A stretch of 64,000 bases of DNA, from positions 1,860,001-1,924,000 of the forward strand of contig NZ_CP066776.1 of the NCBI RefSeq assembly GCF_010681825.2, given 5' to 3'. The DNA is from Sulfuriroseicoccus oceanibius. GTDB taxonomy: Bacteria > Verrucomicrobiota > Verrucomicrobiia > Verrucomicrobiales > SLCJ01. Shown here piece by piece: positions 858 to 18,743 of the stretch. Numbering within the stretch: position 1 is the first letter of the stretch; every line of letters starts with the position of its first letter. Position numbers and translations under genes: made by a program. The notes under the pieces are model-generated. The model saw only the letters and a list, made by a program, of their open reading frames with translations. It was not told the origin of the DNA and ran no database searches.

Positions 858-1606
858 AGGGGAAGCGGAAAGTTGAAAAGGAATCAGCGCGCTGCGCACG
901 GGTGGTCGGGAGGAACGTCACGCAGAGACGCTGAGGTGTGGATGTTGGTTGGGGATTTTCTGGACAGGATTTACATGATTGACGTGATTGGGTGTGGTGT
1001 TTCACGAGGAGACCGCGCTATCGCGAAGAAGCAGAGGAGAGGAGTGGCGGTGTCGTCAACGTCGGTGCGGTGCCGGTATACGGGGGGCGATGAAGCAACC
1101 TCACTCTTGAGGTTGTGCTGATGATCCAGCGCAGTTGCTGGATGTTGATAGAGTAGGCTCACGCGAAGATCCCAAAGACCTAAAGTTGAGGCATGCTTAT
1201 TGAGTGCTTTTTAGACAGGATGGACATGATTCACAGGATTGTGTGGGGGGAGGAGGGAATTGGGAAAGTTGAGATTGGAAAGGCGAAAAGGAATCAGCGC
1301 GCTGCGCGCGAGTGGTCGGAAGGAACCTCACGCAGAGACGCGGAGACGCAGAGGTTTTGAGGAACCGTCACTCCACGCTTGCGTAGATATCATAACAATC
1401 TGAGGAATCTGCGGTTACCCCTATTCTTTAGACAGGATGAACATGATTCACTGGATTTTGTGTGGTGGCTCACGCGCAGGTGTCGCTGAGCGACGAGTTG
1501 GAGAGCAGCTACGCGGCAAGTGGAGGTAGTTGAAGTTAGGGGGGGAGTTGGGCTGCGGGATTGTTGAGATCCTACAGCCCGGATGTCACGGGTGAGTGCC
1601 GCGTTT
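858..1606. repeat. Gene-free block of modular intergenic repeats
   Basis: No credible gene is present. The block carries modules that recur elsewhere in the window. Module A is CTCACGCAGAGACGC plus GGAGACGCAGAG (near 917 and 1329). Module B is TTTAGACAGGAT followed by ACATGATTCAC (near 1211 and 1429). Module C is AATCAGCGCGCTGCGC (near 880 and 1290). Module D is GCAACCTCACTCTTGAGGTT, a short inverted repeat (near 1096). Module E is CACGCTTGCGTAGATATCAT (near 1372). Confidence 0.8.
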
Positions 1607-2278
1607 CTAGCGGCGGCCTTCTTCTTCCTCTACGATGTCGCTGAGGGTGGTGCGAAGGTCTTTGCAGACCTTTTTCGAGCGGACGCCTTTTTGGAAAAGT
1701 CGGGTGGCGGTGACACGGCGCGAGACACTTGAGTATGATGACATGACACCGGCTTCTCCATCGGCCACACAAGAGGCGTTTTGGGATTGGACGCCGTAAT
1801 CCGCCGCGGTTTCCATTGCATTCTGTGTGGCGGCCAGAAAGAGAAACTCCCATTGGTACTCATTGGTTTGGTGCTGGATCATTTCGCGGATCTTGCGGGC
1901 CGAGTAGTCCGTTGAGGCGTTTTCATATCCGTCGGTATAGATGGCGATGATGACCTTTCCTGGGCGCTCGGCTTCCGGCATTTTCGCGAGCTTTTTGCCG
2001 ATGTTGTCGATCGTGCGTCCGATGGCGTCGAGCAGGGCAGTCATGCCCCGCGGGATATAAGTGCGGGCGGTCAGCGGGTTGACTTCGGCGACTGGTTCGC
2101 TGTCCGCGTGGAGCAGGTATTCATCGTCGAAGAGAACGAGGGTGAGGTTGGCGTCGCCATCGGTTTCCTGTTGTTCTTTGAGGAACTGATTGAACCCGGT
2201 GACCGCGGCTTCTTGGAATGGGGACATCGAACCAGAGCGGTCGAGGATGTAGGCGATTTCGGTAAGGTTTGTATTCAT
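1607..2278 (-). CDS. Small von Willebrand factor A (VWA) domain protein
   Basis: The 223-residue protein is essentially one VWA domain. The metal-ion-dependent adhesion site is intact: DRSGSM at residues 13-18, a Thr in RGMTALLDAI, and an Asp in IYTDGYENAS. There is no signal peptide or membrane segment, so it should be cytoplasmic. The start is the ATG at 2278. Repeat blocks isolate it on both sides. VWA proteins are a known partner in the predicted membrane-remodelling system built around FtsZ-like proteins and OmpA-family proteins. A tubulin-like and OmpA operon lies 4 kb away on the same strand, so a link is plausible but only inferred. The domain call is secure and the role is unknown. 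Confidence 0.85.
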   Translation of the reverse strand: MNTNLTEIAYILDRSGSMSPFQEAAVTGFNQFLKEQQETDGDANLTLVLFDDEYLLHADSEPVAEVNPLTARTYIPRGMTALLDAIGRTIDNIGKKLAKMPEAERPGKVIIAIYTDGYENASTDYSARKIREMIQHQTNEYQWEFLFLAATQNAMETAADYGVQSQNASCVADGEAGVMSSYSSVSRRVTATRLFQKGVRSKKVCKDLRTTLSDIVEEEEGRR

Positions 2279-2422
2279 GGGAGTTTGATTGCTGATTGGG
2301 AGCGGTTTCTACTCAATGCGTGTGGTTGTGGATGGTTCCGGAAATTTGTGTGTTTTTATCAAGATGATCCGGAGTGACGCTGATCACCTTAGACAAGGGC
2401 GTGGGACATTGGTGGGGTGAGG

Positions 2423-2735
2423 GGGAGGAAAGCAGATAGTTGAAATGAGAAATCTGAAATGAAGTGAGCGCGCTGGGCGCGGAGGAGGCTTGGTTTTTAG
2501 ACAGGATTTACACGATTCACGGGATTATGGGCTCACGCAGAGATGCAGAGGGGGGCTGAATTGGAGTGAGGGTGTCCTCACTGGCTGAGTCATGTCGTCA
2601 TGCAGGGGGGGCGATGGAGCAACCTCACTCCTGAGGTTGAACTAGGCTCCGGCGGAGCCGCTGGCTGAGGAGACTCACGCGAAGATCCCAAAGACCCAAA
2701 GGTGGAGATAGAGTGAGACGAGTTGAAGCTTCGCA
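2423..2735. repeat. Composite direct repeat, copy 1 of 3
   Basis: First of three adjacent copies of a composite unit that starts GGGAGGAAAGCAGATAGTTG and ends GAGTTGAAGCTTCGCA. It contains modules C, B, A and D in that order, plus the palindromic GGCTCCGGCGGAGCC. This copy lacks the internal E module seen in the other two. No gene is visible between 2279 and 3741. Confidence 0.85.
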
Positions 2736-3292
2736 GGGAGGAAAGCAGATAGTTGAAGTGGGAAGTTTGAAATGAAGTGAGCGCGCTGGGCTCGGAGGAG
2801 GCTTGTTTTTTAGACAGGATTTACATGATTCACGGGATTATGGGCTCACGCAGAGGCGCGGAGACGCAGAGGGGAGAAGAGTTTTAGGTGGTTACGTGGT
2901 TAGGTTTTAGGTGGGGAGTGGTCGCTGCGCTCCGGTGTGATCGAAGACGGTGGGGACAGCGTCACTCCAGGCACCGCACACGCTTGCGTAGAAATCATAA
3001 CAATCTGAGGAATCTGCGGTTCCCCCTATTCTTTAGACAGGATCAACATGATTCACGGGATTGCGTGTAGTGGCTCACGCGGAGACCACGCTATCGCTGA
3101 GACGCAGAGGGGGCTGAATTGGAGTGAGGGTGTCCTCACCGGCTGAGTCATGTGGTCATGCAGGGGGGCGATGGAGCAACCTCACTCCTGAGGTTGAACT
3201 AGGCTCCGGCGGAGCCGCTGGCTGAGGAGACTCACGTGAAGATCCCAAAGACCCAAAGGTGGAGATAGAGTGAGACGAGTTGAAGCTTCGCA
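2736..3292. repeat. Composite direct repeat, copy 2 of 3
   Basis: Second copy, directly abutting the first. It is longer because it carries an extra block with module E (CGCTTGCGTAGAAATCATAA) and a second module B near 3034. Its last 170 bases match copy 1 almost exactly. Confidence 0.85.
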
Positions 3293-3738
3293 GGGAGGAA
3301 AGCAGATAGTTGAAGTGGGAAGTTTGAAATGAAGTGAGCGCGCTGGGCGCGAAGGAGGCTTGTTTTTTAGACAGGATTTACACGATTCACGGGATTATGG
3401 GCTCACGCAGAGGCGCGGAGACGCAGAGGTTTTGAGGAACCGTCACTCCACGCTTGCGTAGAAATCATAACAATCTGAGGAATCTGCGGTTCCCCCTATT
3501 CTTTAGACAGGATCAACATGATTCACGGGATTGCGTGTAGTGACTCACGCGGAGACCACGCTATCGCGGAGACGCAGAGGTATGAATGAATTGGAGTGAA
3601 GGTGTCCTCACCGGTTGAGTCATGTCGTCATGCAGGGGGGCGATGGAGCAACCTCACTCCTGAGGTTGAACTAGGCTCCGGCGGAGCCGCTGGCTAAGGA
3701 GACTCACGCGAAGGTCCCTAAGACCCAAAGTCGGGAGA
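3293..3738. repeat. Composite direct repeat, copy 3 of 3
   Basis: Third copy, directly abutting the second. It has the same module order as copy 2 but lacks roughly 110 bases in the middle. It ends at the 3' end of the gene at 3742. Confidence 0.85.
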
Positions 3739-5772: not shown

Positions 5773-6607
5773 GGAAAGTAGTGATTGGTGATTGGTGATT
5801 GGCCGGGGCGATGCTGTTAGGCGGGTTTCGATGGAGCAACCTCACTCTTGAGGTGGACCTGCAGATCCGGCGGAGCCTCTGGATGGTTTTCTAGACAGGA
5901 TTCACATGATTTACGTGATTTTTAGGAGGTGTCGTGTGGTCGATAAAAGTTTGGAGAAAGGGGGCTCATGCAGAGACCACGCTAGTGCTAAGGCGCAGAG
6001 AAGAGGATGAAGTGGAGCGACGCCGTCACGTTGGGGAGGGGGAGGAAAGTAGACGGTTGAAATGGGAAACTTGAAATGAAGTGAGCGCGCTGTGCGCGGG
6101 TGTCGGGAGGATGCTCACGCAGAGGCGCGAAGACGCAGAGGTGTCGCTGCGCGACGGGTTTAAGGTTCGCTGCGCGGAAAGCGGGGTGTAGTTGAAGTGG
6201 AGATGACGCACAGCGTGCGGATCTGTTGGGAGGATGCTCACGCAGAGAGCCCAAAGACCCAAAGGTTTGGAAAAGGGGGGGGCTCATGCAGAGACCACGC
6301 TAGCGCTAAGGCGCAGAGAAGAGGATGAAGTGGAGTGACGGTGTCCTCACCGTCTGAGAGACGCCGTCACGTGGTTTCCGATCGAACACTCTCAGGTCTT
6401 AGGTCGGATGGAATGGCCACAAGAAAGGCAAGAAGTCACAAAAGCGGAAGCAAGATGGCTCACGCAGAGACGCGAAGACGCAGAGGTGTAGCTGCGCGAC
6501 GGGTTTAAGCTTCGCTGCGCGGAAAGCGGGTGGGGGGATTGAAGATCTAAGGTTTCAAAATTAAGATGAAGTTTGGCTGTGCGTTCCGCCATCTTCCATC
6601 AGGCTCA
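5773..6607. repeat. Gene-free repeat block between the WYL and HNH genes
   Basis: No gene is visible. Module D (GCAACCTCACTCTTGAGG, near 5833), module B (TCTAGACAGGATTCACATG, near 5890) and module A variants (near 5967, 6115, 6237, 6282 and 6461) are present. There is also a local repeat, GCGACGGGTTTAAG followed by TTCGCTGCGCGGAAAGCGGG (near 6154 and 6496). The phrase TCATGCAGAGACCACGCTAG occurs twice, near 5967 and 6285. Confidence 0.8.
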
Positions 6608-7507
6608 TTATGAGCGGCGTAGATGCTTTAGGCGCCAGGCGAGAGATTCTTCGGCTGGGAAGAATGCTTCATCGTTGGGGAGCAGGATGATTTGGCCATT
6701 GAGCTGGAGAAGCTCCTTTTCAGCGTCGGAGCGGCGGGAGTCGAAGAGCGGGCTGACGTGCCATTTGTGATCCGGCCCCGGGCTGATGAGTTTTTGGTCC
6801 ATGGCCCAGTGGTGGTGTTTGCACAATGCCATTCCATTGCTCGGGTGGTCGTTGTGGCTTTGGCTGAACGGAATTAGATGCGCGGCATCGATGAAGCGGA
6901 CGTCATGTTGCGGGAGCTTAATGCGCAGGCCGCAGGCCGCGCAGCGGTCGTCGTAAATCTGAGCGATTTTGTCGCGGAATGCTGAACTTCGTTTCGGGGA
7001 TTCCTGCACGCGGTCGCTAGCGTTTGTTTTCGGGGGCTCGTAGCGAGTTAGTAATTGCTGGCGATACTGAGGAAAGTAGCGGGAGATGAGCAACCGTCGG
7101 ACCGCATCGCGTTTCTCCGGCGTGTCGATCTCGCGTTGGAAGGCGTCGGAGAACTCTCCGACCACCATCCCTCGTTGCTGTTGCAGCGGTGCTTTTTGTA
7201 GCAACTGTCCTGTTGCGAGATCTTTGGCGACCCAGATCTTGTCCGACTTCAAGTGGTAGAATGGCAGCTGTGGAGTGCAGCTGTCATCCTTCGCCCGCAC
7301 CACATCGAAGAACCGCTTGAAGCTCTCGGTCAACTCCTGGTTCCAGACCACCTGGGAGGCGCTCGCCCGCCCCTGGTCGATCATCTCCAGCGCAGCCAGC
7401 AGGAGCAATGGCTTGTGAGGTCGCTCGTGGCGACCTGAACCGGTGCCGGTGATGCCGACGTTGAGGTTGTACAAGGTATCGGCGATGGAGGTGGGGTCGT
7501 GGGGCAT
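6608..7507 (-). CDS. HNH endonuclease with sulfur-binding-domain-like N-terminus
   Basis: 299 residues. Residues about 20-100 carry RHERPHKPLLLLAAL and later LPFYHLKSDKIWV, the signature of the sulfur-binding domain that lets ScoMcrA-type enzymes read phosphorothioate DNA. Residues 180-245 form an HNH nuclease: CAACG (Cys189, Cys192), IDAAHLIPF (His210), Asn224 and CKHHHWAMD. It is therefore probably a type IV-like restriction nuclease. It is the last gene of the seven-gene operon, starting 11 bases after the zinc-finger gene. In Zorya type II, a MotA/MotB pair is likewise accompanied by an HNH protein. The HNH call is secure, the sulfur-binding call is likely, and target specificity is unknown. 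Modified-base or plain-DNA recognition is also possible. Confidence 0.85.
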   Translation of the reverse strand: MPHDPTSIADTLYNLNVGITGTGSGRHERPHKPLLLLAALEMIDQGRASASQVVWNQELTESFKRFFDVVRAKDDSCTPQLPFYHLKSDKIWVAKDLATGQLLQKAPLQQQRGMVVGEFSDAFQREIDTPEKRDAVRRLLISRYFPQYRQQLLTRYEPPKTNASDRVQESPKRSSAFRDKIAQIYDDRCAACGLRIKLPQHDVRFIDAAHLIPFSQSHNDHPSNGMALCKHHHWAMDQKLISPGPDHKWHVSPLFDSRRSDAEKELLQLNGQIILLPNDEAFFPAEESLAWRLKHLRRS

Positions 7508-7518
7508 GTGGAAATTTC

Positions 7519-7992
7519 TTATGTGTGCGCTTTTGCGTGATGTCGCTCGAGTTTCTTAACGAAAACGCCACAGGTGGGGCAGCGGTGTAGGGTTCCTGCG
7601 GATAGAGCGCTCTCTAGACTCGGTCTAGGTGTGTGAGACTCCCAACTTTCAGCGTGGATGGTGCTTAAATGAAGGTCGATATCCCGGACCTTTTTCTTGC
7701 AGATCGAGCAGGTGACTTTCGGTCCTTTTCGACCATGCTTGGGTCTCGAATCTGTACGAGGGACTGTGGGGTAGGCGGATCTATGAGAGCCAGATTCGTA
7801 GATAAAGGTCTTCGGGGGATCATTGACCTCCCCATTGGATGTTCGTAGAACGGGTATACGCTGAGGTAGGCAAGACCTCCCTGATGTTGGAACGTCCCCA
7901 CTGCCCTGGCATCGAAAGCAATTGGGGTTGAGGCCACCACAACAACATGTGCGGGCTGCTCCGGACTTTGTGGGTTCGCTATTGAGGCTCAT
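7519..7992 (-). CDS. Multi-zinc-finger small protein
   Basis: From the ATG at 7992 the protein has 157 residues. A TTG at 8043 would add 17 residues. Three Cys/His clusters are visible: TCCCGGLNPNCFRCQGSGD near the start, CSICKKKVRDIDLHLSTIH in the middle, and CPTCGVFVKKLERHHAKAH at the C-terminus. The last two have the CxxC...HxxxxH layout of small zinc knuckles. There is no catalytic motif or membrane segment. It sits between the MotB-like gene (66 bases upstream) and the HNH gene (11 bases downstream) and is surely cotranscribed. It may bind DNA, RNA or the nuclease as an adaptor. This role is inference from the fingers and the position. Confidence 0.7.
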   Translation of the reverse strand: MSLNSEPTKSGAARTCCCGGLNPNCFRCQGSGDVPTSGRSCLPQRIPVLRTSNGEVNDPPKTFIYESGSHRSAYPTVPRTDSRPKHGRKGPKVTCSICKKKVRDIDLHLSTIHAESWESHTPRPSLESALSAGTLHRCPTCGVFVKKLERHHAKAHT

Positions 7993-8058
7993 AGTGATGA
8001 CGGGCACTGAATTGATGCGTCTGGTCGTGGGACGTCTCCTCAAGTGAGGATGAGGCGC

Positions 8059-9087
8059 TTAGTCACGGAGGCGAGTGAGGCGCATTTCGATGCGACGCGC
8101 CTTGGCGTCATCCTGTTCGAAGTCGGCTTGTTCCACGTCACGTTTGTCTGATGGGAGGATGGTTTGCCCTGCGGAGTAGCATCGTACGGTGATCGACTGC
8201 AGGATGGATTTCTGCTCGTGAGCGTCGGTGAAGGCATCCCACTGGGCTTTCACGGCGAGTGCGCGAAGGAGTCCCAGATCGTTGTTCGATCCTGCTCGCA
8301 GTGATTGGAAGGTGGACGTGTCTCCGGCAAGCAGGCGAGGGAGTTTGGAGTCGAGGTTGCCGCTGCCTGCGAGAGGAATGCCATCGGTATGTCCGATGAT
8401 CTCCAAGGTGTCTACTTTCGCCCGTCCCTGTTGCTGGCGATCTATGATCTCCTTTGCCAGCTTCTCAAATTCAACATCCTTGAGACCATCGGCAAACTGA
8501 GGGCCTATAAGCGAGCTGCCGGAAGGGAACTGGTACTGCTCCTTCTGTTCGTCGATCCGAATGATCGGTGGCTTGTCGTTGAGGATTCCTTTGAGACGCT
8601 CGACCTCCTCCCACCCGTTATTATCCATCGCGTCTTCGAGCTTAGCGGTGAGTTCTTTGATTTTCGCTTGGAGCTCTTTGTTTTGTGCAATGAGGTCGGC
8701 ATTCTCACTTTCCAGTTCTGCGAGTCTCTGCAGGAGTCCTTGTTGGTCGAAGGTGGCAAGGTTCTCGCGCAACTCAACAATGATGTCGTTGGCTGACTCG
8801 CATGTCTCTTTCAGAGAGGTGACGACTGCGTTCGGATCCGCTTCGTCTGGAACAGGTTCAAGGCCGATCGTGGGTCGCAGGGTGTTGATCGGTGTTCGAA
8901 TACTTATGAGGTCTAAACCACCAACGGCTTCAATAACCGCATCCCTGGGCGCTGAATTACTCTTTGGCATCAAGACAAACACCACCGCACCCAGGATGGC
9001 AACTGAGATGATGAAGAGCGTGATGAACAAATCAGAGACACTAGGCCAGTATCCTGAATTTGGATTGTCGTCTTCGGGGTCTAGCAT
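8059..9087 (-). CDS. MotB/ZorB-like inner-membrane protein with OmpA domain
   Basis: 342 residues. One membrane helix lies at residues 18-40, starting WPSVSDLFITLF. Asp19 falls where MotB and ZorB carry the proton-binding Asp. A coiled coil follows (about 105-170), then an OmpA/MotB peptidoglycan-binding domain (about 180-342) with IGHTDG at 231-236, NNDLGLLRALAV and a final ARRIEMRLTR. This is the layout of a stator B subunit: a short cytoplasmic tail, one helix, then a periplasmic anchor. It begins 20 bases after the MotA-like gene, so the pair is almost certainly coexpressed and forms a complex. The fold is secure. Whether it really conducts ions is an inference from the Asp. Confidence 0.85.
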   Translation of the reverse strand: MLDPEDDNPNSGYWPSVSDLFITLFIISVAILGAVVFVLMPKSNSAPRDAVIEAVGGLDLISIRTPINTLRPTIGLEPVPDEADPNAVVTSLKETCESANDIIVELRENLATFDQQGLLQRLAELESENADLIAQNKELQAKIKELTAKLEDAMDNNGWEEVERLKGILNDKPPIIRIDEQKEQYQFPSGSSLIGPQFADGLKDVEFEKLAKEIIDRQQQGRAKVDTLEIIGHTDGIPLAGSGNLDSKLPRLLAGDTSTFQSLRAGSNNDLGLLRALAVKAQWDAFTDAHEQKSILQSITVRCYSAGQTILPSDKRDVEQADFEQDDAKARRIEMRLTRLRD

Positions 9088-9107
9088 TGGGCTACAGGCG
9101 ATTTAGA

Positions 9108-10688
9108 TCAGTTGCTTCCGAAAAGGCGCATTCTTCTTGATACCCTGGATTTGATTTCCTCGGCCGATCTCTCGATCGACTTCACCCCTTCCGATATCTT
9201 TTCGGAGAGCTGTTCGTTTTCATCTGCCAACCGGGCGGCGGTGCCTTCCAGTGTAGCTCGGGATTCCTTGGCCTCTGCTACAACTGTTTGCATAGTGGTA
9301 GCGTTTGCGTCTAGCTTCGTGTGCACGTCGTTGAGCTGCTCCTTCACGGTGGTCTTTAGATCTCCAACCAGCTCGCGGTTCAGCTGGTTCGCTGAGGTTA
9401 CTTTGCTGGCGACTTGATCCGCACTTTCTGCGAGTTTATGACTTGCCGTCCTTAGCTCTTCGATGGACTCGCTTTGCTTCTTCGTGACATCTGCCAGAGT
9501 TGCTTTGGTGTCATTTTCGAACTTTTCAGCGACCTTGGAGACTTTCGCTCCGACTTGATTGAAGACCTCAGAAGCGGCGATCTCGGTGGCGTTCTCAATT
9601 CGGCTTGGGATGTCGCTAAGAGCCGACTCGATATCACGCAACGTGGTCTCGAAGTTGTCGATACTCTTCGCTACGCGCTTGTTCGATTTTGTCGCTTCGG
9701 AACTGATACCGGACACACTCTTAGCGAGAGTATCGAGAGTATCGTTGAAGCCTGTTATCGCGTTGTGGAGTGGGGACTTCTCTCCAAAGGTGTCAGTGAG
9801 TGAATTATTGAGTGAAGAGCTGCTATCGCTCAATGAGCGGGCTGCAGTATGCGCTTGCCCAACCCCATCACGCAGTAGTGCCATTGCTGGTGCAATTGTG
9901 CCCAACAGATCTCTCAGCCCCTTTATGACTTCCTCAAATTTTCGCTCACGCTCTCCGACCTCGTCGGTTAGCTCTTTTACTTGGTCTGTAACTCCCGAGA
10001 GTTGGAGATGAAGTGGTTCGACGCGGAAGCGAGTGAGGAGGGTTCCTTGGGTGAAACGGTCGAGATCGATGATGAAACTATGCAGTGCTATCGAGTAGAA
10101 TCCCCGGCAGAGCAATACAAGTAGTGTGAAGCCGAGTGCGACGAGACTCGGTGTAAATGCTCCACCCAAACTCTGAATCATTTCTGAGACCAAATTCGCA
10201 CTGTCTGCGACTCCCTGCAGTTCTCCGTTTGCAGTGGTTTTGATGCGGAACGCTGCGAGGATTGGCTTGATTGCCAACAATGTGCCCACGATTCCAAGCA
10301 CCAGCAGTGACGTTGCGATTCCTGAAGCGATCCGAAGAGATTTACGGGCTCGTTCTCTCTTAACCGAGGCTGAATGGAACTCCGACAATGAAGTGGGGCG
10401 ACCGATGTACCATGAAGTCCAGGCGGTTCTCGCCGCGTCGCTCACATGAGACTGTTGATTTATTTCTCGTTCTTTGAGCCAGCGCTCAAACGCTTCGTCG
10501 TTTTCGGCAAATGCGCCTTTCCAGTTGCTATCGAGAACGAGAGCTCTTTTGGCTTTACGTAAGGCATCGCGTTCGACAGCGATAGCTCGCCAGGCGATTA
10601 ATGCAGCCACCATGCCAATGACTCCGACCGCACCGACGATGATCGCACTGAGAGTTGGTGGAATGTTTATGTATGAGAGTGTGATCAT
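9108..10688 (-). CDS. MotA/ExbB/ZorA-like protein with long coiled cytoplasmic tail
   Basis: 526 residues. Membrane helices lie near residues 12-36, 119-143 and 175-200. The second contains VLGIVGTLLAI and the third follows GGAFTPSLVALGF, matching the conserved GxxGT and AFxTSLxGL positions of MotA, ExbB and ZorA. From about residue 230 to the end the protein is an uninterrupted Ala/Glu/Lys/Ser-rich helical tail (for example VKELTDEVGERERKFEEV). Flagellar MotA and ExbB lack such a tail, while ZorA has one. Its start overlaps the stop of the substrate-binding/OmpA gene by 4 bases, and the MotB-like partner follows. It is probably the A subunit of an ion-driven five-to-two stator complex. Tail function is unknown and may involve signalling to the nuclease. 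Confidence 0.85.
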   Translation of the reverse strand: MITLSYINIPPTLSAIIVGAVGVIGMVAALIAWRAIAVERDALRKAKRALVLDSNWKGAFAENDEAFERWLKEREINQQSHVSDAARTAWTSWYIGRPTSLSEFHSASVKRERARKSLRIASGIATSLLVLGIVGTLLAIKPILAAFRIKTTANGELQGVADSANLVSEMIQSLGGAFTPSLVALGFTLLVLLCRGFYSIALHSFIIDLDRFTQGTLLTRFRVEPLHLQLSGVTDQVKELTDEVGERERKFEEVIKGLRDLLGTIAPAMALLRDGVGQAHTAARSLSDSSSSLNNSLTDTFGEKSPLHNAITGFNDTLDTLAKSVSGISSEATKSNKRVAKSIDNFETTLRDIESALSDIPSRIENATEIAASEVFNQVGAKVSKVAEKFENDTKATLADVTKKQSESIEELRTASHKLAESADQVASKVTSANQLNRELVGDLKTTVKEQLNDVHTKLDANATTMQTVVAEAKESRATLEGTAARLADENEQLSEKISEGVKSIERSAEEIKSRVSRRMRLFGSN

Positions 10689-12655
10689 GGTTTTACGACC
10701 CAGACTTCCGCTCTGCGGTTTCTGGCTTTTCCTGCTTCGGTTTCATTGGTGTCGATAGGGAATTCAGAGCCCAGACCCGCTGCCTTTGTATCAACATTGG
10801 ACTTGAGCAGTTCATCCACGACGGTCTGAGCGCGTTCTTTGGAGAGTGGGATATTGATGTCCGCGCCACCGGTGCTGTCGGTGAATCCGAGAATCACGAG
10901 TTGGTGTTTGGGATAGTTTGCCGCGACGAATTTCGGCAAGCGCTCCAAGTCAGCCTGGGCCTTAAGGTCCAGATCGGATTTTCCTGTCGCGAAGCGCAGG
11001 TTGGTGGAAATGCGCAGAGCGGACTTTATGTCCTCTCCGAGCGCCTCGCCAAGTGCGGCTAAGATTCTAGGGTCAACGCTCCCTTGCATTGGCCGGAGGC
11101 GCAGATCAACGAAACCGCAGTCGGCAACTGTGGACTGCCCCTTGTCCGAAGTCGCAAACTGCACAAAGTCCAAAGCATTTTGGGACGGGCTCTGAGGCGT
11201 CCAGGCGACCACGCGGTAGGTGAACGGGTAGTCTTCGGTTGCGATCGTGAACGGGCTTGGTTTCAGTGGTCTGGTGTCTTTGGTTGCTTGTACCGCCAAG
11301 CGTTTGGCCCGGATGTTGCGGGATTCCGCATGGTATGCCCCCAGACCAATAACCGACTTGTCGAGCAGAACGGCCGTTTCGGTTGTTGAACCATCCACGG
11401 TGATAGGCTGCAAGCCCCAGCGTTGAGCCAAGGATTTCACCAGTTCGTTGAGCTCGCCGTTCGCCGTAATCAAATTGGCATTGTCGTTGATATGGTAGGT
11501 TTCAAGCTCTGTTTCCGGGTGTGCCAGCAGGGTCATGGCATCGAGCGCAATCACCTCTGCTACCGACCTGGATTCTTTGAAGTCTGGCCCGAGTTGGGCC
11601 AGCTCTGCCTCGCTTGGTGGACGATTTACGATGAGCAGATCTGCTTTGCCTTCTGCAAGAAGGGTAAAGGCCTGATCGACCGATGTGGTCGTGATCAGGA
11701 TCTTCTCTTCACCTGATCTGACGTAGGACGATGACCCATCCGTTTGAATTTCGACGTCTGTCAGCTGCGCTAAGATGAGTGGCTGGAGAAGTCGGACACC
11801 TAGTGTATCGACCGTGACTATGCGCATGGTCGCTTCGCTGGCATCGAACAGGACAGGGGGCAGCGGTACATAGGCATTGAGTGACTGCTGAATCCCAGTG
11901 AGGGACTCTCCGATTACCATGAGTTGCTGCTTATCGGAATCGCGGCCTTGTGTGTCGTCGTTGCCTCTGGCCAGCTTCGAAGCCCGTGCCATTTCCGCAC
12001 GGACCGATTCGGTGAGGTTGTCGTAGTCGACGCCGTGGGTGTCACATGCACTCTCTTGCTGGGTCGTTTGAGTCGTCTCTTCAAGTTGTTGAAGTGATTG
12101 TACCAGTTGACCTGCTTGAGTGCGTAATTCGTCGGTTTGCAACGGCTGTGACGCCTTCTGCTGCAAGTGCTGCAGTTGTTTCTCGAACTCAGAAGCTTGT
12201 GCTTGAAGGGCTGCAACCTTCTCATCGTCTTTGGCTGCGAGAGCTCCATTGGCCGCAGACGCCAGTGCGCCCACGCCTTGTTGGAGCTCTGCGATTGCGG
12301 CTTGATTCCCTTGAGTGGATTGGCTGGCCGCGATTGCGGTCTCCAAGCTGCCTACCTCAGAGGATAGCTGCTCAAGTGATTCATGGATCGAGTTGAGCTT
12401 TCCTTCGCAACGGTCCGCCGTGATGAACCGGTAGGCGCCTAGGGCAATCAGAGCCACTACAAGCAGGGCGAAAATGCCCTTGATCGCAGATTTGAATCCG
12501 CGAGTTTCCGTCACCTTTATGGGCTCTCTGAAGGTCTCACAGTGCGGGTTGTTACACGGGCACTTCCAGTCTGGAGTTGGGTCTACGATTTCCTTGGACA
12601 CCGAGAGCGGGCAGCTCTCGGTGGGGTCGTCACATCTGAATTTTTTCGAGCTCAT
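10685..12655 (-). CDS. Cys-rich N-terminus, membrane anchor, substrate-binding and OmpA fusion protein
   Basis: 656 residues. The cytoplasmic N-terminus has five cysteines (8, 15, 32, 34, 39: FRCDDPTESCPL, WKCPCNNPHCETF), perhaps a zinc site. One membrane helix (about 57-77) is followed by a coiled coil (80-210) and a PstS-like periplasmic binding domain (about 265-520; KADLLIVNRPPSEAEL, TVDGSTTETAVL). The C-terminal OmpA domain (about 540-656) has VILGFTDSTGG, PLSKERAQTVV and ARNRRAEVWV. Similar substrate-binding/OmpA fusions exist in other bacteria. It overlaps both neighbours by 4 bases. In this operon it may sense a periplasmic ligand or wall state and tie the tubulin-like protein to the envelope. 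That role is inferred. Confidence 0.85.
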   Translation of the reverse strand: MSSKKFRCDDPTESCPLSVSKEIVDPTPDWKCPCNNPHCETFREPIKVTETRGFKSAIKGIFALLVVALIALGAYRFITADRCEGKLNSIHESLEQLSSEVGSLETAIAASQSTQGNQAAIAELQQGVGALASAANGALAAKDDEKVAALQAQASEFEKQLQHLQQKASQPLQTDELRTQAGQLVQSLQQLEETTQTTQQESACDTHGVDYDNLTESVRAEMARASKLARGNDDTQGRDSDKQQLMVIGESLTGIQQSLNAYVPLPPVLFDASEATMRIVTVDTLGVRLLQPLILAQLTDVEIQTDGSSSYVRSGEEKILITTTSVDQAFTLLAEGKADLLIVNRPPSEAELAQLGPDFKESRSVAEVIALDAMTLLAHPETELETYHINDNANLITANGELNELVKSLAQRWGLQPITVDGSTTETAVLLDKSVIGLGAYHAESRNIRAKRLAVQATKDTRPLKPSPFTIATEDYPFTYRVVAWTPQSPSQNALDFVQFATSDKGQSTVADCGFVDLRLRPMQGSVDPRILAALGEALGEDIKSALRISTNLRFATGKSDLDLKAQADLERLPKFVAANYPKHQLVILGFTDSTGGADINIPLSKERAQTVVDELLKSNVDTKAAGLGSEFPIDTNETEAGKARNRRAEVWVVKP

Positions 12656-15636
12656 ACGCTAAGAATCTTGCGGATGTGGGTACGGGTTTTGGTCCACTGA
12701 ACGTGTTGTTTGCTGCCGGTGCCAAACTCATTGATGAGCTTGGATTCCTCGGCTTTCATCGCATTTGCCAACTCATCCTTCGTTGCTGTGGTGGCTCCTG
12801 CAATCTCACCGGTCACGGCTTCGTTGACTCGCGCGATCAAGCGAATGTCGGCCTTTGTTTCCAAATGCTCGATGCTTTCACCGAGTTCGTAGAAGTTGGT
12901 GTCCCCGTTGCGGTCCAAAGTGACCAACTGCACGGCATCCTCAGTCACTGTGATAACTGTAGTTCCCGATCCGTCTGCCAGAGTGCGCTGGCCAAGCCAA
13001 AGACTGGCACGCATGATGTCGCGTTGTTCGCTGGCTGATGGTTGGAGCAAATCTGGGAGTTCGTCGTGCTCTCCTTTCGCATCGATGTTACTAAAGTAGG
13101 CGATGTCTCCCAAGGTGTTCTGCTCGATCGCCTTGGCGTATTTGTCAGCCAGTTCATGGGTGACTTTTGCAAAGCGTGCAGCCATCCAAGTGACTGTCAT
13201 CAAGAGTCGGATCTGAGTCGAGTCGTCGTGGCTCACCACTCTCACAGGATTGTTCGCTTCGTTTGCTGGGCGAAGCTCTGCAGCGATTTCCTCGAACTTG
13301 GCTGCGAAGGCATGACCTTTTGGGAGTGCCAGTACCCGGGAGGTGGTCGGCATGGTCGGCATGGTCATGTTTCCAGCGATCATCTTGGGTTGCTGATCGT
13401 TATGAATCTTGATCAAGCAGGTCGTCTGATCGATGAACTCTTTTAGTTCGTTCTTGAATGCTCCTGGATCTTTTTCAAATTTCGCCTGAAGAGCGTCCAT
13501 CAACGATGAAGTGAGCACTGCTGGGGCGAGCCTCTGCTCCTCGAAATCTTTGTGAATTGATTGGACGTGAGCGAAAACAAGACGATCAGCCTCAATTTGA
13601 TAGTTTGTGAGACGGTCCCCCTCGAAGCTTTCTATTTCGGTCAGCGGGACGTTCTTGCCAAGGAGCTCCAAGACGACGTCCCTGCGGAGCTGGTCGGCGA
13701 TGGCCCGGCAATGCGATTCACTTGAGCGTTGAACTGAGATGTATTGAAGCAGTCCGTCATAGTCGATCTCGTATTTGTTCGAGGTGTGGGACTTGTTGAG
13801 GTCCTTGAGTTCGCCCAGAAGTACGTCTCTACGGTTGCTAGCCCAATCTGCAAAACCTTGAAGTTTTCTGGCTGCGTTTTTGTACTGGTGTTCGATTCCG
13901 GTGAGGCTGTTGGCGATGGCATTGTGATATGCCAAATCCTCTTCCGCAATTGCAGTTGCTAGTTTCCCCAGTAGCAAGGATTTGCAGTCAGAGTGTTGCT
14001 TTCTAGCCAAAGGTTCCTTTTTGAAACGGCGGGAGAGGAAGGTCATCTTGCTCCATTCGATTCTGCGGTCAGAAAGCCGTCTCTCGGTCGTGTCCGAACC
14101 CGATTTAGAGGAACTATTACCATCTTTGATCTTGCGGTTTACGTCATTTTGCAGTCGCTTGAGAATGTCCGACACGTTGGCCATTCCAATGGGATCTACC
14201 GCTTTGCTCCATTCTTCCCGTAGAATCCGGTGTAGCTCTTTGGTGAACTGTTGAATACGTCCTTCCCGGGACGCCTTGAAGTCGGCAATGACAGCGTTGA
14301 TTCCCTGGCCGTTGAGATGTTTCTCGAAGCGAGTATGAAGGGACTCCTCCAGCTTCTCCAAGTCAGTTTCCTGAAACTTGGTGCTGATTTCACGATCAAG
14401 GACCGCTTTGGCGTCCGTTTCGAACGACGCTCTGAGGTTGGTGTGGTGGGTGCTCTCCACCAGATGTTCGTCGAGCTTGGTTCTCAAGGTGTTGAAGGTG
14501 CTTTCTACGACCTTGTCGGATTCGGTAGACTTCTTTCCAATGAAGCCGTCGTTTCCGTGCCAGTTGTTGTAGAGCATCTGGTTGTATGACGAACTGTAGA
14601 GTTCCAAGGCGAGGAGCTCGGTGATCTTCTCTGTGGGAACCTCCCACCGCTGCATGCCTGAGCTGCCGAAACGGAAGCTGCGAATGGGCTTGTTGATAGG
14701 CTCTCCGGGGAAGTTGGGGATCTTGTCCTGGCCGGTAAGTTGATCTTGTTGCTGAGGCGGTAATTGGCCAGAGCAGAAGGCGAAGATGCGCTCGAATGCA
14801 GATTCCGCTATGATGCGGTGCTGCTTCTCGAGTTCGACGTTCTGATCCCCGTTGTTATGGCTTGAGCTCAGGATGATTTGATTGATCGGCTCCGAACACG
14901 CGAAGCTAGATCCCCCGAATTGATCACCGAGGAGGGTTGGGGCGATACGTCCGCAAGCGAGAGCGTTGAGGTCTCGCAGAGTTGCATACTGGTTTTGGTG
15001 GAAGTTTCCTACCTCGGCATCTTGGTAGTTGTCACTGGTTACGTAGAGGTAAACGAAGATTGGGAAACCTCCTTGCATGCTCGAGTAAGGATGCATCGTG
15101 CGGAGTAATGTAACCAAGTCGACGATGCTGCCGCTGCCCGTTCCTCCCGCCAATGATGCGAATACATGGAAAGCGCACTGCTTTGCCGCTGCGGTCATGG
15201 TTCGAACCTTGCCATCAATCGCGTTCTTCACGCTGTCGATGCTGTTGGCGAAGAGGATTCGTCCAAAGCGGCGGCGTTGGTTAGCTCCCTCGATGGTATC
15301 TGATGCGTCGAGGAATCCCTTGATCTGTTCGACGTCGCCAATCCATGGCGCGATGTCTGGCTTCATCGCGAGTTGGTCAATGTCGATCGTTGCGCCCATC
15401 TCCTTGAGATTTAGAAAGCACTTAGGAGGGAGCGAGAGATCCTCTCCGAACGAGGTCCACTTTTTCGTGTAGTTGAGGACGTTCGTACTAGAGTCGATGT
15501 AGAGGAAGTCGAATTGCGTGCCTTTCTCACGCTTTAGAAGTCGGATGTCATCAGCACGTTGGTGCATGACCTTGCGCATTTCGGCGAGGCTGTTGCCTCC
15601 TTGGCCTCCGAGGCCGATAAACAGGTGGTTTTTCAT
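12652..15636 (-). CDS. Giant tubulin/FtsZ-superfamily GTPase (Tubulin_2-like)
   Basis: 994 residues, more than twice FtsZ. The N-terminal GTPase core shows the T1 loop GLGGQGGN (8-15), a T3-like IDSSTNVLN (47-55), RRFGRILFANS (122-132) and the tubulin signature AGGTGSGS (163-170), then NQYATLRDLNAL. Beyond about residue 330 lies a long mostly helical region with several coiled-coil stretches (about 360-730) and a smaller C-terminal domain (about 780-994). It has no membrane helix. Its start lies 30 bases after the upstream membrane gene, and its end overlaps the substrate-binding/OmpA gene by 4 bases. FtsZ-like proteins of this sort were predicted by comparative genomics to act with VWA and OmpA proteins in membrane remodelling. 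GTP binding is very likely. Polymer formation is untested. Confidence 0.9.
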   Translation of the reverse strand: MKNHLFIGLGGQGGNSLAEMRKVMHQRADDIRLLKREKGTQFDFLYIDSSTNVLNYTKKWTSFGEDLSLPPKCFLNLKEMGATIDIDQLAMKPDIAPWIGDVEQIKGFLDASDTIEGANQRRRFGRILFANSIDSVKNAIDGKVRTMTAAAKQCAFHVFASLAGGTGSGSIVDLVTLLRTMHPYSSMQGGFPIFVYLYVTSDNYQDAEVGNFHQNQYATLRDLNALACGRIAPTLLGDQFGGSSFACSEPINQIILSSSHNNGDQNVELEKQHRIIAESAFERIFAFCSGQLPPQQQDQLTGQDKIPNFPGEPINKPIRSFRFGSSGMQRWEVPTEKITELLALELYSSSYNQMLYNNWHGNDGFIGKKSTESDKVVESTFNTLRTKLDEHLVESTHHTNLRASFETDAKAVLDREISTKFQETDLEKLEESLHTRFEKHLNGQGINAVIADFKASREGRIQQFTKELHRILREEWSKAVDPIGMANVSDILKRLQNDVNRKIKDGNSSSKSGSDTTERRLSDRRIEWSKMTFLSRRFKKEPLARKQHSDCKSLLLGKLATAIAEEDLAYHNAIANSLTGIEHQYKNAARKLQGFADWASNRRDVLLGELKDLNKSHTSNKYEIDYDGLLQYISVQRSSESHCRAIADQLRRDVVLELLGKNVPLTEIESFEGDRLTNYQIEADRLVFAHVQSIHKDFEEQRLAPAVLTSSLMDALQAKFEKDPGAFKNELKEFIDQTTCLIKIHNDQQPKMIAGNMTMPTMPTTSRVLALPKGHAFAAKFEEIAAELRPANEANNPVRVVSHDDSTQIRLLMTVTWMAARFAKVTHELADKYAKAIEQNTLGDIAYFSNIDAKGEHDELPDLLQPSASEQRDIMRASLWLGQRTLADGSGTTVITVTEDAVQLVTLDRNGDTNFYELGESIEHLETKADIRLIARVNEAVTGEIAGATTATKDELANAMKAEESKLINEFGTGSKQHVQWTKTRTHIRKILSV

Positions 15637-15666
15637 GGTTGGAAAGTACTTGAAAGGGTAATGGAG

Positions 15667-16446
15667 TTAGAGGGTTTCTTTGATGTCGTTGAGTGCCGTG
15701 GTAGCGACGATGAGGAGTTGGGACATCAGCGAGATTCCCAATGCTACCAAGGCAATTGTTTGAAGGAGGGAGAATGGTTTGGCCAACTCCTTGAGAAGTT
15801 TGTCGACTGCGCGGCCGGTTCCAACGGTTACCGCGGTCGATGTCCAAATGTTGGCTGGGGAGACAATCACGGGGTAATCTGAGGAGGGGAATCCGACTTC
15901 TGCGAGTGCGCGGGATCCTGTGAGTTCGGGGCTAATCTCCGGTTCTTGAATGCCCGAGGAAAAGAGAGAGAAATCTCTTCTTTGCTGACTGGCGAGCTCT
16001 GCTGCAGTAGTACTCAAGACGAGTGCTTCTGCCGGACCGTTGATGCGGAGTTCGTTTCCTCCCTCGGAGGGCGGGGTGAGTCCTTCTTGTCCTCCCTTGT
16101 GTGCAATCTTGGCCCAAGTGGCCAGTAGAACTTCGCGATTGAACTTGCCATTGCTCGAGATCGTTTGGCTAACTTCAGCCCGTTGGTTCTCGATCGAGTC
16201 GAAGGCCTTGTGCGTTACCAGTGCCAGATAGACGGATGTGGCTCCGATGACGGCCAGAAGAAGCGATGTCGTAGTGGTAACGAGGTGGTCACCGATTGTC
16301 CACTGCTTATTCCACAGCCTTCCCCAAAAAAACAACAACAGAGGAATCCATACAAAAACGACACATCCGGCCACAAAGATTGGCCACGTAAGGCCTGATG
16401 AGGCGGGATATTTGAGTGCAAACTCTAGAAGTTCAGGGGCACGCAT
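15667..16446 (-). CDS. Membrane protein, first gene of the tubulin/MotAB/HNH operon
   Basis: From the ATG at 16446 the protein has about 259 residues. A TTG at 16458 is the alternative. Two membrane helices lie at about 19-41 (FVAGCVVFVWIPLLLFFW) and 53-76. A soluble loop of about 150 residues precedes a C-terminal helix (about 225-250, LVALGISLMSQLLIVATT). I recognise no family. The middle stretch after the second helix (NQRAEVSQTISSNGKFN, then EVLLATWAKIAHKG) is probably extracytoplasmic. It leads the operon and ends 30 bases before the tubulin-like gene. A TTGACA hexamer lies at 16482-16477 on this strand, 17 bases before a weak ATTGTT. If that is the promoter, the leader would be very short. 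Confidence 0.75.
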   Translation of the reverse strand: MRAPELLEFALKYPASSGLTWPIFVAGCVVFVWIPLLLFFWGRLWNKQWTIGDHLVTTTTSLLLAVIGATSVYLALVTHKAFDSIENQRAEVSQTISSNGKFNREVLLATWAKIAHKGGQEGLTPPSEGGNELRINGPAEALVLSTTAAELASQQRRDFSLFSSGIQEPEISPELTGSRALAEVGFPSSDYPVIVSPANIWTSTAVTVGTGRAVDKLLKELAKPFSLLQTIALVALGISLMSQLLIVATTALNDIKETL

Positions 16447-16804
16447 GGTTGGTAACAATCCGATTTAGATCGATGGTGTCAAGGTTTCGGAGCGTTTGTG
16501 GCTGATTTTGATCGAGCGTTCTGCGGAGCCTTTGGCACTAAAGGAGGCGAGTTTGGTGTAGGTATTTTGTTTGATGGGCTGCTGATGGCTTTTTAGATGC
16601 TCGGAAAACATACACCTTGGGGTGGGACAAGGGCTGGGGGATGGCGGTAGGAAATCGGAAGGAAAATTTGAAATGAGGCGGCGGTGTGTGGCAGGTGGAT
16701 GTCGTTGAAGGTCAGGTGTCGGTGATTAGTATTTGTTGATCAGGACATTGGCGGTCCCTACTAACAACTTTCATAGATGTTAAGTATGGCGTAGTGGATG
16801 CGCC
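16447..16804. promoter_or_regulatory. Divergent intergenic region between the operon and the nuclease gene
   Basis: It holds the start regions of the minus-strand operon and the plus-strand nuclease gene. A TTGACA is seen on the minus strand (16477-16482). It carries only weak traces of the repeat modules seen in other gaps (GGAAAATTTGAAATGAGG near 16661). No gene or clear operator palindrome is visible. Confidence 0.4.
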
Positions 16805-17422
16805 ATGAATCAACGCCCCCTCTTGATCCTGGTTGTATTAGTGTGTCTTGTCTCGGTGCTTTTTGGTCATTCGGCCGAGGAGTTGCGGGGGAAGGTGGTC
16901 CGTGTGGCGGATGGAGATACGATTACTGTGCTGGTGGAACGCGAGCAGTATAAAGTGCGGTTGGATGGGATTGATGCGCCTGAGATGGGGCAGGCTTTTG
17001 GTAATAGATCGAAGCAGGCGTTGTCGGGTCAGGTGGCTGGAAAGCAGGTGGTGGTGAAGGTGAATGGTAAGGACAAGTACGGGCGGACGATTGGTGTGGT
17101 CATTTTAGACAATACCAATGTGAATGAGTGGATGGTGGCTGAGGGGTGGGCGTGGCAGTATACTAAGTATAACCGGAGTGAACGCTTGGCGCGGATGGAG
17201 GCGCGCGCCAGGGAGCTTGGGCTCGGACTGTGGGCGGGGGCGAACCCAGTGGCGCCGTGGGAGTACCGGCCGCTGAAGAAGAAACGCCCGGTTTCTGGCT
17301 ATTGGTTGAATACATCGTCGAACACGCGGCACAACTCGAACTGTGAGTGGTATGAGAACACGGCGCGTGGAAGGACGTGTGGGAAGGATGAGGGTAAGCC
17401 TTGCGGGAGTTGCGGCGGGTGA
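16805..17422 (+). CDS. Secreted staphylococcal-nuclease-like (thermonuclease) protein
   Basis: 205 residues with an N-terminal signal peptide (LLILVVLVCLVSVLFGHSA). The SNase domain carries VADGDTITVL, VRLDGIDAPEMGQ (catalytic Arg and calcium-site Asp) and KYGRTIGVVI, so it is probably an active calcium-dependent nuclease outside the cytoplasm. The tail (SGYWLNTSSNTRH, then CEWYENTARGRTCG and CGSCGG) is a Cys-rich module often attached to bacterial SNase domains. It begins divergently from the operon at 16446 and is alone. A second SNase-like gene is at 47686. Its location beside the defence-like operon may be chance. Confidence 0.88.
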   Translation: MNQRPLLILVVLVCLVSVLFGHSAEELRGKVVRVADGDTITVLVEREQYKVRLDGIDAPEMGQAFGNRSKQALSGQVAGKQVVVKVNGKDKYGRTIGVVILDNTNVNEWMVAEGWAWQYTKYNRSERLARMEARARELGLGLWAGANPVAPWEYRPLKKKRPVSGYWLNTSSNTRHNSNCEWYENTARGRTCGKDEGKPCGSCGG

Positions 17423-18743
17423 GGCGGGGGAAATGGGAAAGTTGAGATGGGAGATTTGAAATGAAGTTTGCGCGCTGCGCGCGGATGGTAGGAAGGAGGC
17501 TCACGCAGAGACGCAGAGACGCGGAGACGCAAAGGGAGAGGAAAAGCGGAAAGTAGAAATTGGAGATGTGAAATGGAGTGAGTGCGCTGTGCGCGGAGGG
17601 ATGGGAGAGTGCTCACGCAGAGATCCCAAAGACCCAAAGTGGGAGATGTGTTTCGCCTGAATGATGATGGGCTCACGCGGAGACGCAGAGGGAGTGGAGA
17701 AATGCGGCTGCGCCGGGTGGGACGGCTTGCCGACCAGATGGTTGGCGTTCCAGAAGCTGTGCGTGCTGCGGAGTGATTTGGGCTAGACGGGGAAGCCTTG
17801 ATTCCAATCTGCGTAATCGGCGCAATCTGCGGATTACAAAAGAAGGGGCACAGGTAGCAGCGTCCTGGGGATCTCGACCGTTGATTTAGGTGGAGGCTTT
17901 GAGGCATCGGTGGACAGGGTGAGCGGCGGAGGATGTTCGTCGGAACCTACACAGGTCCTCCGCCGCTCGTGCTAAGTTTGATGAAAGCGACAAGACTTAG
18001 CGCGGTGGGGGTACGAGTGGATGGAGGTGGTTGCAATCGGGGGCGTGTGAAGGATTCGTTGCGGATGTTGGCATCTCAGACAGGACGGATAGGATTCACA
18101 GGATTGTTTATGGGCTCACGCAGAGACGCGGAGTGTGAGGAAAAGCGGAAAGTTGAGATTGGAGATGTGAAATGGAGTGAGTGCGCTGTGCGCGGATGGA
18201 GAGGAGGTGGCTCACGCAAAGACGCGGAGACGCAGAGTGTGCGGAAAAGCGGAAAGTTGAGATTGGAGATGTGAAACGGAGTGAGCGCGCTGTGCGTGGA
18301 TGGAGGGGAGATTGCTCACGCAGAGATCCCAAAGACCCAGAGTTGAGGCATGGTTATTGGGTGTTTTTTTCGACAGGATGAACATGATTCACAGGATTTT
18401 GTGGGGGAGGTTGGAAATGGGAAATGAAGAGGATTGGCTGTGCACGGATGGAGGGAGATGGCTCACGCGGAGACGGGGAGACGCAGAGGGAGAGGAGAAA
18501 TGCGGCTGCGCCGGATGGGATGGCTTGCCGACCAGATGATCGGCGTTCCATGAGCTGTGCGTGCTGCGGAGTGATTTGGGCTAGACAGGGATGCCCTGAT
18601 TCCAATCTGCGTAATCGGCGCAATCTGCGGACTCTGATAGCAATGTCATGAGTGACAGTGTGTGGGGGGGAGTGGAAATCGGTGAGTGTGGGTGAATTAG
18701 CTTGCCGCGCAGGGGCTTAAAGGGATGATGTTACTCGACTGTT
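17423..18743. repeat. Gene-free block of modular repeats
   Basis: Module A and its CCCAAAGACCCAAAG variant recur (near 17502, 17624, 18115, 18211 and 18315). Module C recurs as GAAATGAAGTTTGCGCGCTG and relatives (17458, 17572, 18171, 18275). Module B appears near 18079 and 18371. A longer duplicate (AAATGCGGCTGCGCCGG through GAGTGATTTGGGCTAGACGG to AATCTGCGTAATCGGCGCAA) is present at about 17700-17835 and 18505-18632. The short frames here are built from repeats and are not credible genes. Confidence 0.8.

What the first reader, a model, noticed from the sequence alone, without database searches (positions are those of the whole stretch)
8059..10688. MotA/MotB-like pair matches ZorA/ZorB in layout, not the flagellar stator
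Seen: three helices with GxxGT and AFxTSLxGL-like positions, then a tail of about 300 helical residues. The partner has Asp19 at the start of its single helix and a C-terminal OmpA domain. Known: ZorA has a long cytoplasmic tail and ZorB a peptidoglycan-binding domain. Flagellar MotA lacks the tail, and no flagellar genes are nearby. The usual ZorC/ZorD genes are absent.
Basis: partly seen in the sequence, partly recalled or inferred. Interest (0 to 1): 0.75.

Follow-up and report, generated by a model that had tools for sequence, protein, structure and literature searches.

The report
Zorya-like motor in tubulin-like gene operon
A pair of bacterial genes for a probable ion-driven rotary motor, closest in sequence to the Zorya anti-phage motor, is a fixed part of a five-gene operon built around a tubulin-like protein, a pairing I could not find described and which suggests a new kind of envelope-guarding or envelope-remodelling machine.

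Summary
ORF 9108-10688 (526 aa) has three TM helices and a long helical tail. ORF 8059-9087 has Asp19 at the start of one TM helix and a C-terminal OmpA-like domain. It is more than a layout match. A TM-only profile of the MotA-like family finds ZorA as its best solved structure (8.4e-5, MotA only 0.7). The ZorA positions T147 and S184 are kept as T136 and S181. The AlphaFold model's best matches are all TolQ/ExbB/ZorA, and 10 of 14 MotB-like relatives hit ZorB type I (best 4.4e-25).

It is not a Zorya system as defined: no ZorC/D, E or F/G was found. The pair is the last two genes of a strict unit: 3-TM protein, FtsZl1/Tubulin_2 GTPase, TM-SBP-OmpA protein, ZorA-like, ZorB-like. The unit occurs in 17 distinct loci (Verrucomicrobia, Chromatiaceae), with the FtsZl1 proteins in one clade. 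A secreted SNase gene lies beside it in 6 of 17. The FtsZl1 operon was described in 2010, without MotA/B.

Best reading: a ZorAB-class motor coupled to an FtsZl1 GTPase, probably an envelope-sensing conflict (anti-phage) system. Motor identity is well supported; function is inferred. A new variant of a known kind.

The parts
9108..10688 (-). ZorA/MotA-like motor subunit, 526 aa: TM 13-31, 128-146, 176-194; ion-path candidates T136, S181; helical tail about 226-520
   Evidence: fold search; TM-only profile best PDB hit ZorA 8qyh 8.4e-5; PF01618 in 4 of 24 relatives, best 5.2e-5
8059..9087 (-). ZorB/MotB-like subunit, 342 aa: D19 at the start of TM 20-38, coiled coil about 90-165, OmpA-type peptidoglycan-binding domain about 185-340
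   Evidence: PADLOC ZorB1 in 10 of 14 relatives, best 4.4e-25
10685..12655 (-). TM-anchored protein, 656 aa: cytoplasmic Cys ribbon (C8, C15, C32, C34, C39), TM 56-74, coiled coil, PstS-like SBP domain, C-terminal OmpA domain 554-647
   Evidence: OmpA 7.2e-13; ptsS_2 1.1e-5; ribbon conserved in most relatives; 4-nt overlap with both neighbours
12652..15636 (-). FtsZl1 / Tubulin_2 GTPase-like protein, 994 aa, GGTGSG signature at 164-169, long helical C-terminal part
   Evidence: PF13809 3e-33; alignment A1; tree
15667..16458 (-). 3-TM protein, 263 aa (TM 27-45, 63-81, 228-246; WNK motif), first gene of the unit; the true start may be the ATG four codons in
   Evidence: family found beside most FtsZl1 genes of the MotAB clade and beside many others; confident model (pLDDT 90) without a clear PDB match
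16805..17422 (+). secreted SNase-domain protein, 205 aa, divergent from the unit; candidate associated effector
   Evidence: PF00565 5.3e-24; SNase beside the unit in 6 of 17 loci
7519..8043 (-). small Cys-rich zinc-finger-like ORF, 174 aa (TTG start), 15 nt after the MotB-like gene; not conserved with the unit
6608..7507 (-). HNH nuclease, 299 aa, phosphorothioate-DNA McrA type; possible local accessory, not conserved with the unit
   Evidence: NF045808 3.3e-32; PADLOC HNH 3e-13, ZorE2 only 4e-4; absent in other loci
1607..2278 (-). stand-alone vWA protein, 223 aa, MIDAS DRSGSM intact; possible associated component
   Evidence: 57% identical to the vWA gene near the unit in L031; homologue directly upstream of the SNase in L024/L027; single copy in own genome

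Best explanation
The pair is an ion-driven 5:2-type motor of the ZorAB class that works together with an FtsZl1 (Tubulin_2) GTPase. Supported by tests here: ZorA/ZorB relationship, conserved ion-path and peptidoglycan-contact residues, a long cytoplasmic helical tail, and a fixed operon with a 3-TM protein, FtsZl1 and a Cys-ribbon-TM-SBP-OmpA protein. Inferred: the ZorB-like and SBP-OmpA proteins hold or sense peptidoglycan; envelope disturbance opens the ion path; the ZorA-like ring turns; its tail, with the cytoplasmic Cys ribbon, acts on an FtsZl1 polymer or patch at the membrane. The machine is most likely a conflict (anti-phage) system, in which a secreted SNase, and locally other DNA enzymes, attack incoming DNA.
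For: Homology: TM-only profile best to ZorA; ZorB1 in 10 of 14 relatives; fold. Ion path: T136 (21 of 22 T, 1 S) and S181 (19 of 22 S, 3 G) align with ZorA T147 and S184; D19 invariant in 14 of 14. Coupling: the same genes in the same order in nearly all of 17 distinct loci, with short gaps or overlaps; MotAB-bearing FtsZl1 proteins fall in one clade (95/100) that includes gammaproteobacterial members, so the unit moves between phyla. Conflict theme: patchy (3 of 387 genomes match the MotA-like and 8 of 387 the FtsZl1 protein); SNase beside the unit in 6 of 17 MotAB loci and in none of about 60 other FtsZl1 loci; a PDC-S37/Hhe-like helicase directly downstream in L031; an HNH nuclease downstream here. 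Tubulin-family proteins with vWA partners were already placed in predicted conflict systems (PMC7159879).
Against: No phage assay exists. Downstream DNA enzymes differ from locus to locus and most loci have none. In L016/L042, L029 and L038 the unit follows gyrB-gyrA, a housekeeping neighbourhood. No relatives in phages or viral contigs, and only two distant matches on plasmids. SNase loci are partly related by descent, so the counts are not independent. Fold comparison alone ranks TolQ/ExbB at least as high as ZorA. Direct contact between the tail and FtsZl1 is untested.
Confidence: 0.5

Rival explanations
1. Envelope-remodelling or vesicle machine: FtsZl1 polymers and a ZorAB-class motor deform the inner membrane or anchor it to peptidoglycan, as proposed for FtsZl1 operons in 2010, with no defence role. 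The motor supplies force as TolQR does in cell division.
For: FtsZl1 operons with vWA, GTPase and OmpA proteins were predicted to remodel membranes (PMC2875224). The core 3-TM, FtsZl1 and SBP-OmpA genes exist without MotAB in many phyla. gyrase neighbourhood in several loci. Fold close to TolQ.
Against: Very patchy occurrence, transfer between phyla and SNase/helicase neighbours are unusual for housekeeping envelope machinery.
Confidence: 0.3
2. DNA- or nutrient-uptake machine: the motor energises transport across the periplasm; the SBP domain binds a ligand, and the secreted SNase (with a ComEA-like HHH domain in three loci) processes external DNA as food.
For: SBP domain in the OmpA protein; HHH_3 on the SNase in L024, L026, L031; ExbBD/TolQR-type motors power envelope transport (general knowledge).
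Against: No outer-membrane receptor, pilus or ABC transporter in the unit; the MotB-like protein is ZorB-like with an OmpA domain, not ExbD/TolR-like; no FtsZ-family protein is known to me in uptake.
Confidence: 0.1
3. A degenerate Zorya system that lost ZorC/ZorD and happens to lie beside an FtsZl1 operon.
For: Sequence relation to ZorA/ZorB.
Against: The linkage is conserved in 17 distinct loci over two phyla, with intact reading frames and invariant ion-path residues; no ZorA1 (PDLC00601) found in 194 relatives, though no control rang.
Confidence: 0.05
4. A generic TolQ/ExbB-type or flagellar stator paralogue unrelated to Zorya.
For: Best VIA Z-scores are TolQ (12.7) and ExbB (11.7); PF01618 hits in 4 of 24.
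Against: Sequence profile hits ZorA, not TolQ/ExbB; partner is ZorB-like with OmpA; no FliG; eight ordinary PF01618 matches exist elsewhere in the genome.
Confidence: 0.05

Closest known systems
Zorya anti-phage systems, ZorA/ZorB core (type I: 8qyd, 8vvn)
   Same: Three-TM A subunit with long cytoplasmic tail, B subunit with TM aspartate and OmpA-like domain, equivalents of ZorA T147 and S184; sequence matches
   Different: No ZorC/D, E, F/G; operon instead carries FtsZl1, SBP-OmpA and 3-TM proteins; A-subunit sequence similarity is weak (about 1e-4)
FtsZl1 (Tubulin_2, PF13809) operons of Makarova and Koonin 2010 (PMC2875224)
   Same: FtsZl1 protein with long helical C-terminus, OmpA-family protein, often a vWA protein
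   Different: The paper does not mention MotA, MotB or TolQ; the P-loop GTPase and kinase genes described there are not in this unit
GTPase-centric tubulin/vWA conflict systems of Kaur et al. 2020 (PMC7159879)
   Same: Tubulin-family protein with coiled coil and vWA proteins in predicted conflict systems
   Different: Those are centred on other GTPases; no MotA is mentioned in the text
TolQR / ExbBD motors
   Same: Same A-subunit fold (Z 12.7 and 11.7)
   Different: TolR/ExbD lack the OmpA domain; no long tail; no TolA/TonB here
Flagellar MotAB/PomAB
   Same: Ion-motor fold, MotB-type aspartate and peptidoglycan-binding domain
   Different: No FliG in the genome; MotA hits only at E 0.7; MotA has four TM helices and no such tail

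Membership tests
Zorya anti-phage system | ZorA-type A subunit (3 TM, long cytoplasmic tail) | tested here: met
   similarity is to the TM2-TM3 core and the layout, below curated ZorA cut-offs
Zorya anti-phage system | ZorB-type B subunit (TM Asp plus OmpA-like domain) | tested here: met
   (ZorB1, 10 of 14 relatives)
Zorya anti-phage system | Effector set ZorCD (I), ZorE (II) or ZorFG (III) | tested here: not met
   no ZorC/D/F/G among neighbours; the HNH protein is PT-McrA type (3.3e-32) with only a weak ZorE2 hit (4e-4) and is not conserved with the unit
Zorya anti-phage system | Protection against phages | not testable with these tools
   needs a bench assay
5:2 ion-driven motor superfamily (MotA/TolQ/ExbB/ZorA) | A-subunit fold | tested here: met
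   top 22 rows of the structural comparison all belong to it, Z 12.7-10.4
5:2 ion-driven motor superfamily (MotA/TolQ/ExbB/ZorA) | Conserved TM aspartate in B and polar Ser/Thr ring in A | tested here: met
   D19 14/14; T136 21 T and 1 S of 22; S181 19 of 22
5:2 ion-driven motor superfamily (MotA/TolQ/ExbB/ZorA) | 5:2 assembly and ion flow | not testable with these tools
   only single chains could be modelled
Flagellar stator MotAB | Flagellar rotor in the genome (FliG) | tested here: not met
   FliG_C absent in own genome while four control genomes ring
FtsZl1 / Tubulin_2 | N-terminal Tubulin_2 domain with GGTGSG and long helical C-terminus | tested here: met
   PF13809 3e-33; G164-G169 invariant in alignment A1; helical C-terminus not modelled here
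FtsZl1 operon of 2010 | OmpA-family partner gene | tested here: met
   OmpA partner adjacent and conserved
FtsZl1 operon of 2010 | vWA partner gene (in most operons) | tested here: inconclusive
   a vWA gene lies 5.8 kb away here and near the unit in two other loci, not in the rest

The most novel reading that the evidence does not exclude
A membrane motor that drives, or is gated by, a tubulin-family polymer: rotation of a ZorA-like pentamer is transmitted by its cytoplasmic tail to FtsZl1 filaments, forming a motor-plus-cytoskeleton immune machine with a secreted nuclease effector.
Probability: 0.25. Interest if true: 0.9.

Novelty: new variant of a known kind. Interest (0 to 1): 0.63.

Why it matters
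FtsZl1 proteins were described in 2010 and I found no assigned function for them, and how Zorya motors signal through their tails is open. A fixed operon that joins the two gives both questions a testable partner: the tail may act on a tubulin-like GTPase. It would also be the first link between an ion-driven rotary motor and a tubulin-family protein that I know of (own knowledge; searches found no such report in the held library).

Tried and rejected
Single-protein search of viral contigs with the MotA-like protein, and alignment searches with FtsZl1 and the MotB-like protein, gave no relatives; phages gave none, plasmids two distant FtsZl1 matches. ZorA1 search of 194 relatives found nothing, but no control rang, so it shows little. 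The larger MotB profiles A5 and A8 lost sensitivity (ZorB 0.007-0.009) against the three-sequence profile A3 (1.6e-11); part of A3's score may come from coiled coil, so I rely. The 3-TM protein gave no convincing structural match: best Z 7.7 to BAR domains, within the range expected for helical proteins. The zinc-finger and HNH genes 6608-8043 were considered as parts of the unit and rejected because no other locus has them.

Full report
WHAT IS THERE. The two ORFs of the finding exist as described. They are the last two genes of a minus-strand operon: 3-TM protein (15667-16458), Tubulin_2/FtsZl1 protein of 994 aa (12652-15636, PF13809 3e-33), a 656-aa TM-SBP-OmpA protein (10685-12655), the MotA-like protein (9108-10688) and the MotB-like protein (8059-9087). 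FtsZl1/SBP-OmpA and SBP-OmpA/MotA-like overlap by 4 nt; the MotA-like and MotB-like genes are 20 nt apart. The genome (3.5 Mb) probably belongs to the Verrucomicrobiales: a genome of the same order (G098) has a contig of the same length, 109,738, as an uncultured Akkermansia record.

IS THE PAIR A MOTOR. Pfam MotA_ExbB does not hit the window protein itself but hits 4 of 24 relatives (best 5.2e-5). The AlphaFold model is confident for residues 11-220 except for the TM2-TM3 loop (blocks of 10 residues mostly 88-96, loop 64-74), and all of the top 22 rows in the structural comparison are TolQ, ExbB or ZorA (Z 12.7-10.4). PomA follows at Z 9.0. Z alone does not separate these families. By sequence, a profile of the TM regions of 22 relatives finds ZorA constructs first (8qyh 8.4e-5, 8qyy 3.3e-4, 8qyd 1.6e-3) and MotA only at 0.7; TolQ and ExbB are not listed. 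In the printed alignment, T136 lies on ZorA T147 and S181 on ZorA S184 (counted by hand from the alignment). T136 is T in 21 and S in 1 of 22, S181 is S in 19 of 22. That these two ZorA residues line the ion path is my recollection; the Nature paper is not held. The held Zorya paper describes a conserved Ser/Thr ring around the ZorB aspartate (PMC11890865). The MotB-like family hits ZorB type I in 10 of 14 members, best 4.4e-25, with D19 invariant in 14 of 14 and the GHTD, R275 and RR positions of the OmpA fold invariant in the ten closest.

THE UNIT. One scan of genome contigs with an FtsZl1 alignment gave 79 loci. Profile searches over their ORFs, plus loci from the phylum searches, show the MotA-like gene in 17 distinct loci, after 3-TM, FtsZl1 and SBP-OmpA genes. 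L035 lacks a called 3-TM gene, in L077 the FtsZl1 frame was not called, and L038 and L064 have four MotA-like genes and no MotB motif in the fetched sequence. L016/L042 and L077 have two MotA-like genes. In the FtsZl1 tree all 16 MotAB-bearing rows fall in one clade of 21 (support 95/100). Of the five others in it, L021 and L032 end at a contig end and L040, L041 and L067 show no MotA. Thiocapsa and Thiodictyon sequences nest among verrucomicrobial ones, with one verrucomicrobial row as sister to Thiocapsa, so transfer between phyla is likely. Many FtsZl1 loci in Methylacidiphilum, Bacteroidales and Proteobacteria keep 3-TM and/or SBP-OmpA genes without MotAB. The MotAB pair is therefore a module joined to one branch of a wider FtsZl1 system. 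The SBP-OmpA protein has an N-terminal Cys ribbon before its TM helix in most members, also outside the clade.

ASSOCIATED GENES. A secreted SNase-domain protein lies beside the unit in 6 of 17 MotAB loci (G000, L015, L024, L026, L031, L035) and beside none of about 60 other FtsZl1 loci (Fisher 5e-5, related loci not independent). In L015, L024, L026 and L031 it is upstream on the same strand, in L035 downstream, here divergent. The own genome has three SNase genes in 3.5 Mb. In L024, L026 and L031 the protein also carries a helix-hairpin-helix domain. A small vWA protein with an intact MIDAS lies near the unit here (1607-2278, single copy in the genome), in L031 (57% identical) and in L024/L027, upstream of the SNase. 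L031 has a PDC-S37/Hhe-like helicase directly downstream. Here the downstream genes are a zinc-finger ORF and an HNH nuclease of the phosphorothioate-DNA type. Against a pure defence-island picture, gyrB-gyrA (named from their sequences, not tested) precede the unit in L016/L042, L029 and L038.

MECHANISM. Shown by comparison: ZorAB-type motor parts, fixed linkage to FtsZl1, conserved functional residues. Inferred: envelope sensing through two OmpA domains, ion-driven rotation, action of the tail on FtsZl1 at the membrane, and a DNA-degrading outcome. I judge defence as most likely because of the ZorAB relation, patchiness, transfer and nuclease neighbours, and because tubulin/vWA systems were predicted to be conflict systems (PMC7159879). 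The 2010 membrane-remodelling idea (PMC2875224) remains the main rival.

NOVELTY. The FtsZl1 operon and Zorya are both known. The 2010 paper does not mention MotA, MotB or TolQ, and eight literature searches in the held library found no report that joins the two. Subscription papers and preprints are mostly not held, so prior description cannot be excluded.

Noticed in passing
window 843-3730, 5804-6530, 17399-18668: The same families of intergenic repeats (D1, D2, D6, D11 and others) lie on both sides of the region 6608-17399 and not inside it, as if it were an inserted block.
   Followed up: partly
window 47965-48369: A second SNase-domain gene lies in the window, about 30 kb from the unit.
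   Followed up: no
L113 3063-8218 (Rhizobium johnstonii plasmid pRL11): A different four-gene set: 4-TM protein, vWA-like protein, MotA-like protein with tail and OmpA/MotB-like protein, with a convergent thermonuclease gene; a similar set without the nuclease in Sinorhizobium (L114).
   Followed up: partly
L038 15505-21286, L064 6899-12256: Four successive MotA-like genes of unequal sequence in Akkermansia-type loci, which could mean rings of mixed subunits.
   Followed up: no
L016, L042, L029, L038, upstream of the 3-TM gene: gyrB and gyrA directly precede the operon in several Akkermansiaceae loci.
   Followed up: no
window 6608-8043: HNH nuclease of phosphorothioate-DNA McrA type after a small zinc-finger ORF, 15 nt from the MotB-like gene; the zinc-finger ORF has no relative in the other 366 genomes of the phylum searched.
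   Followed up: partly
window 15667-16458: 3-TM family shared by many FtsZl1 loci; confident model (pLDDT 90) without a clear PDB match.
   Followed up: partly
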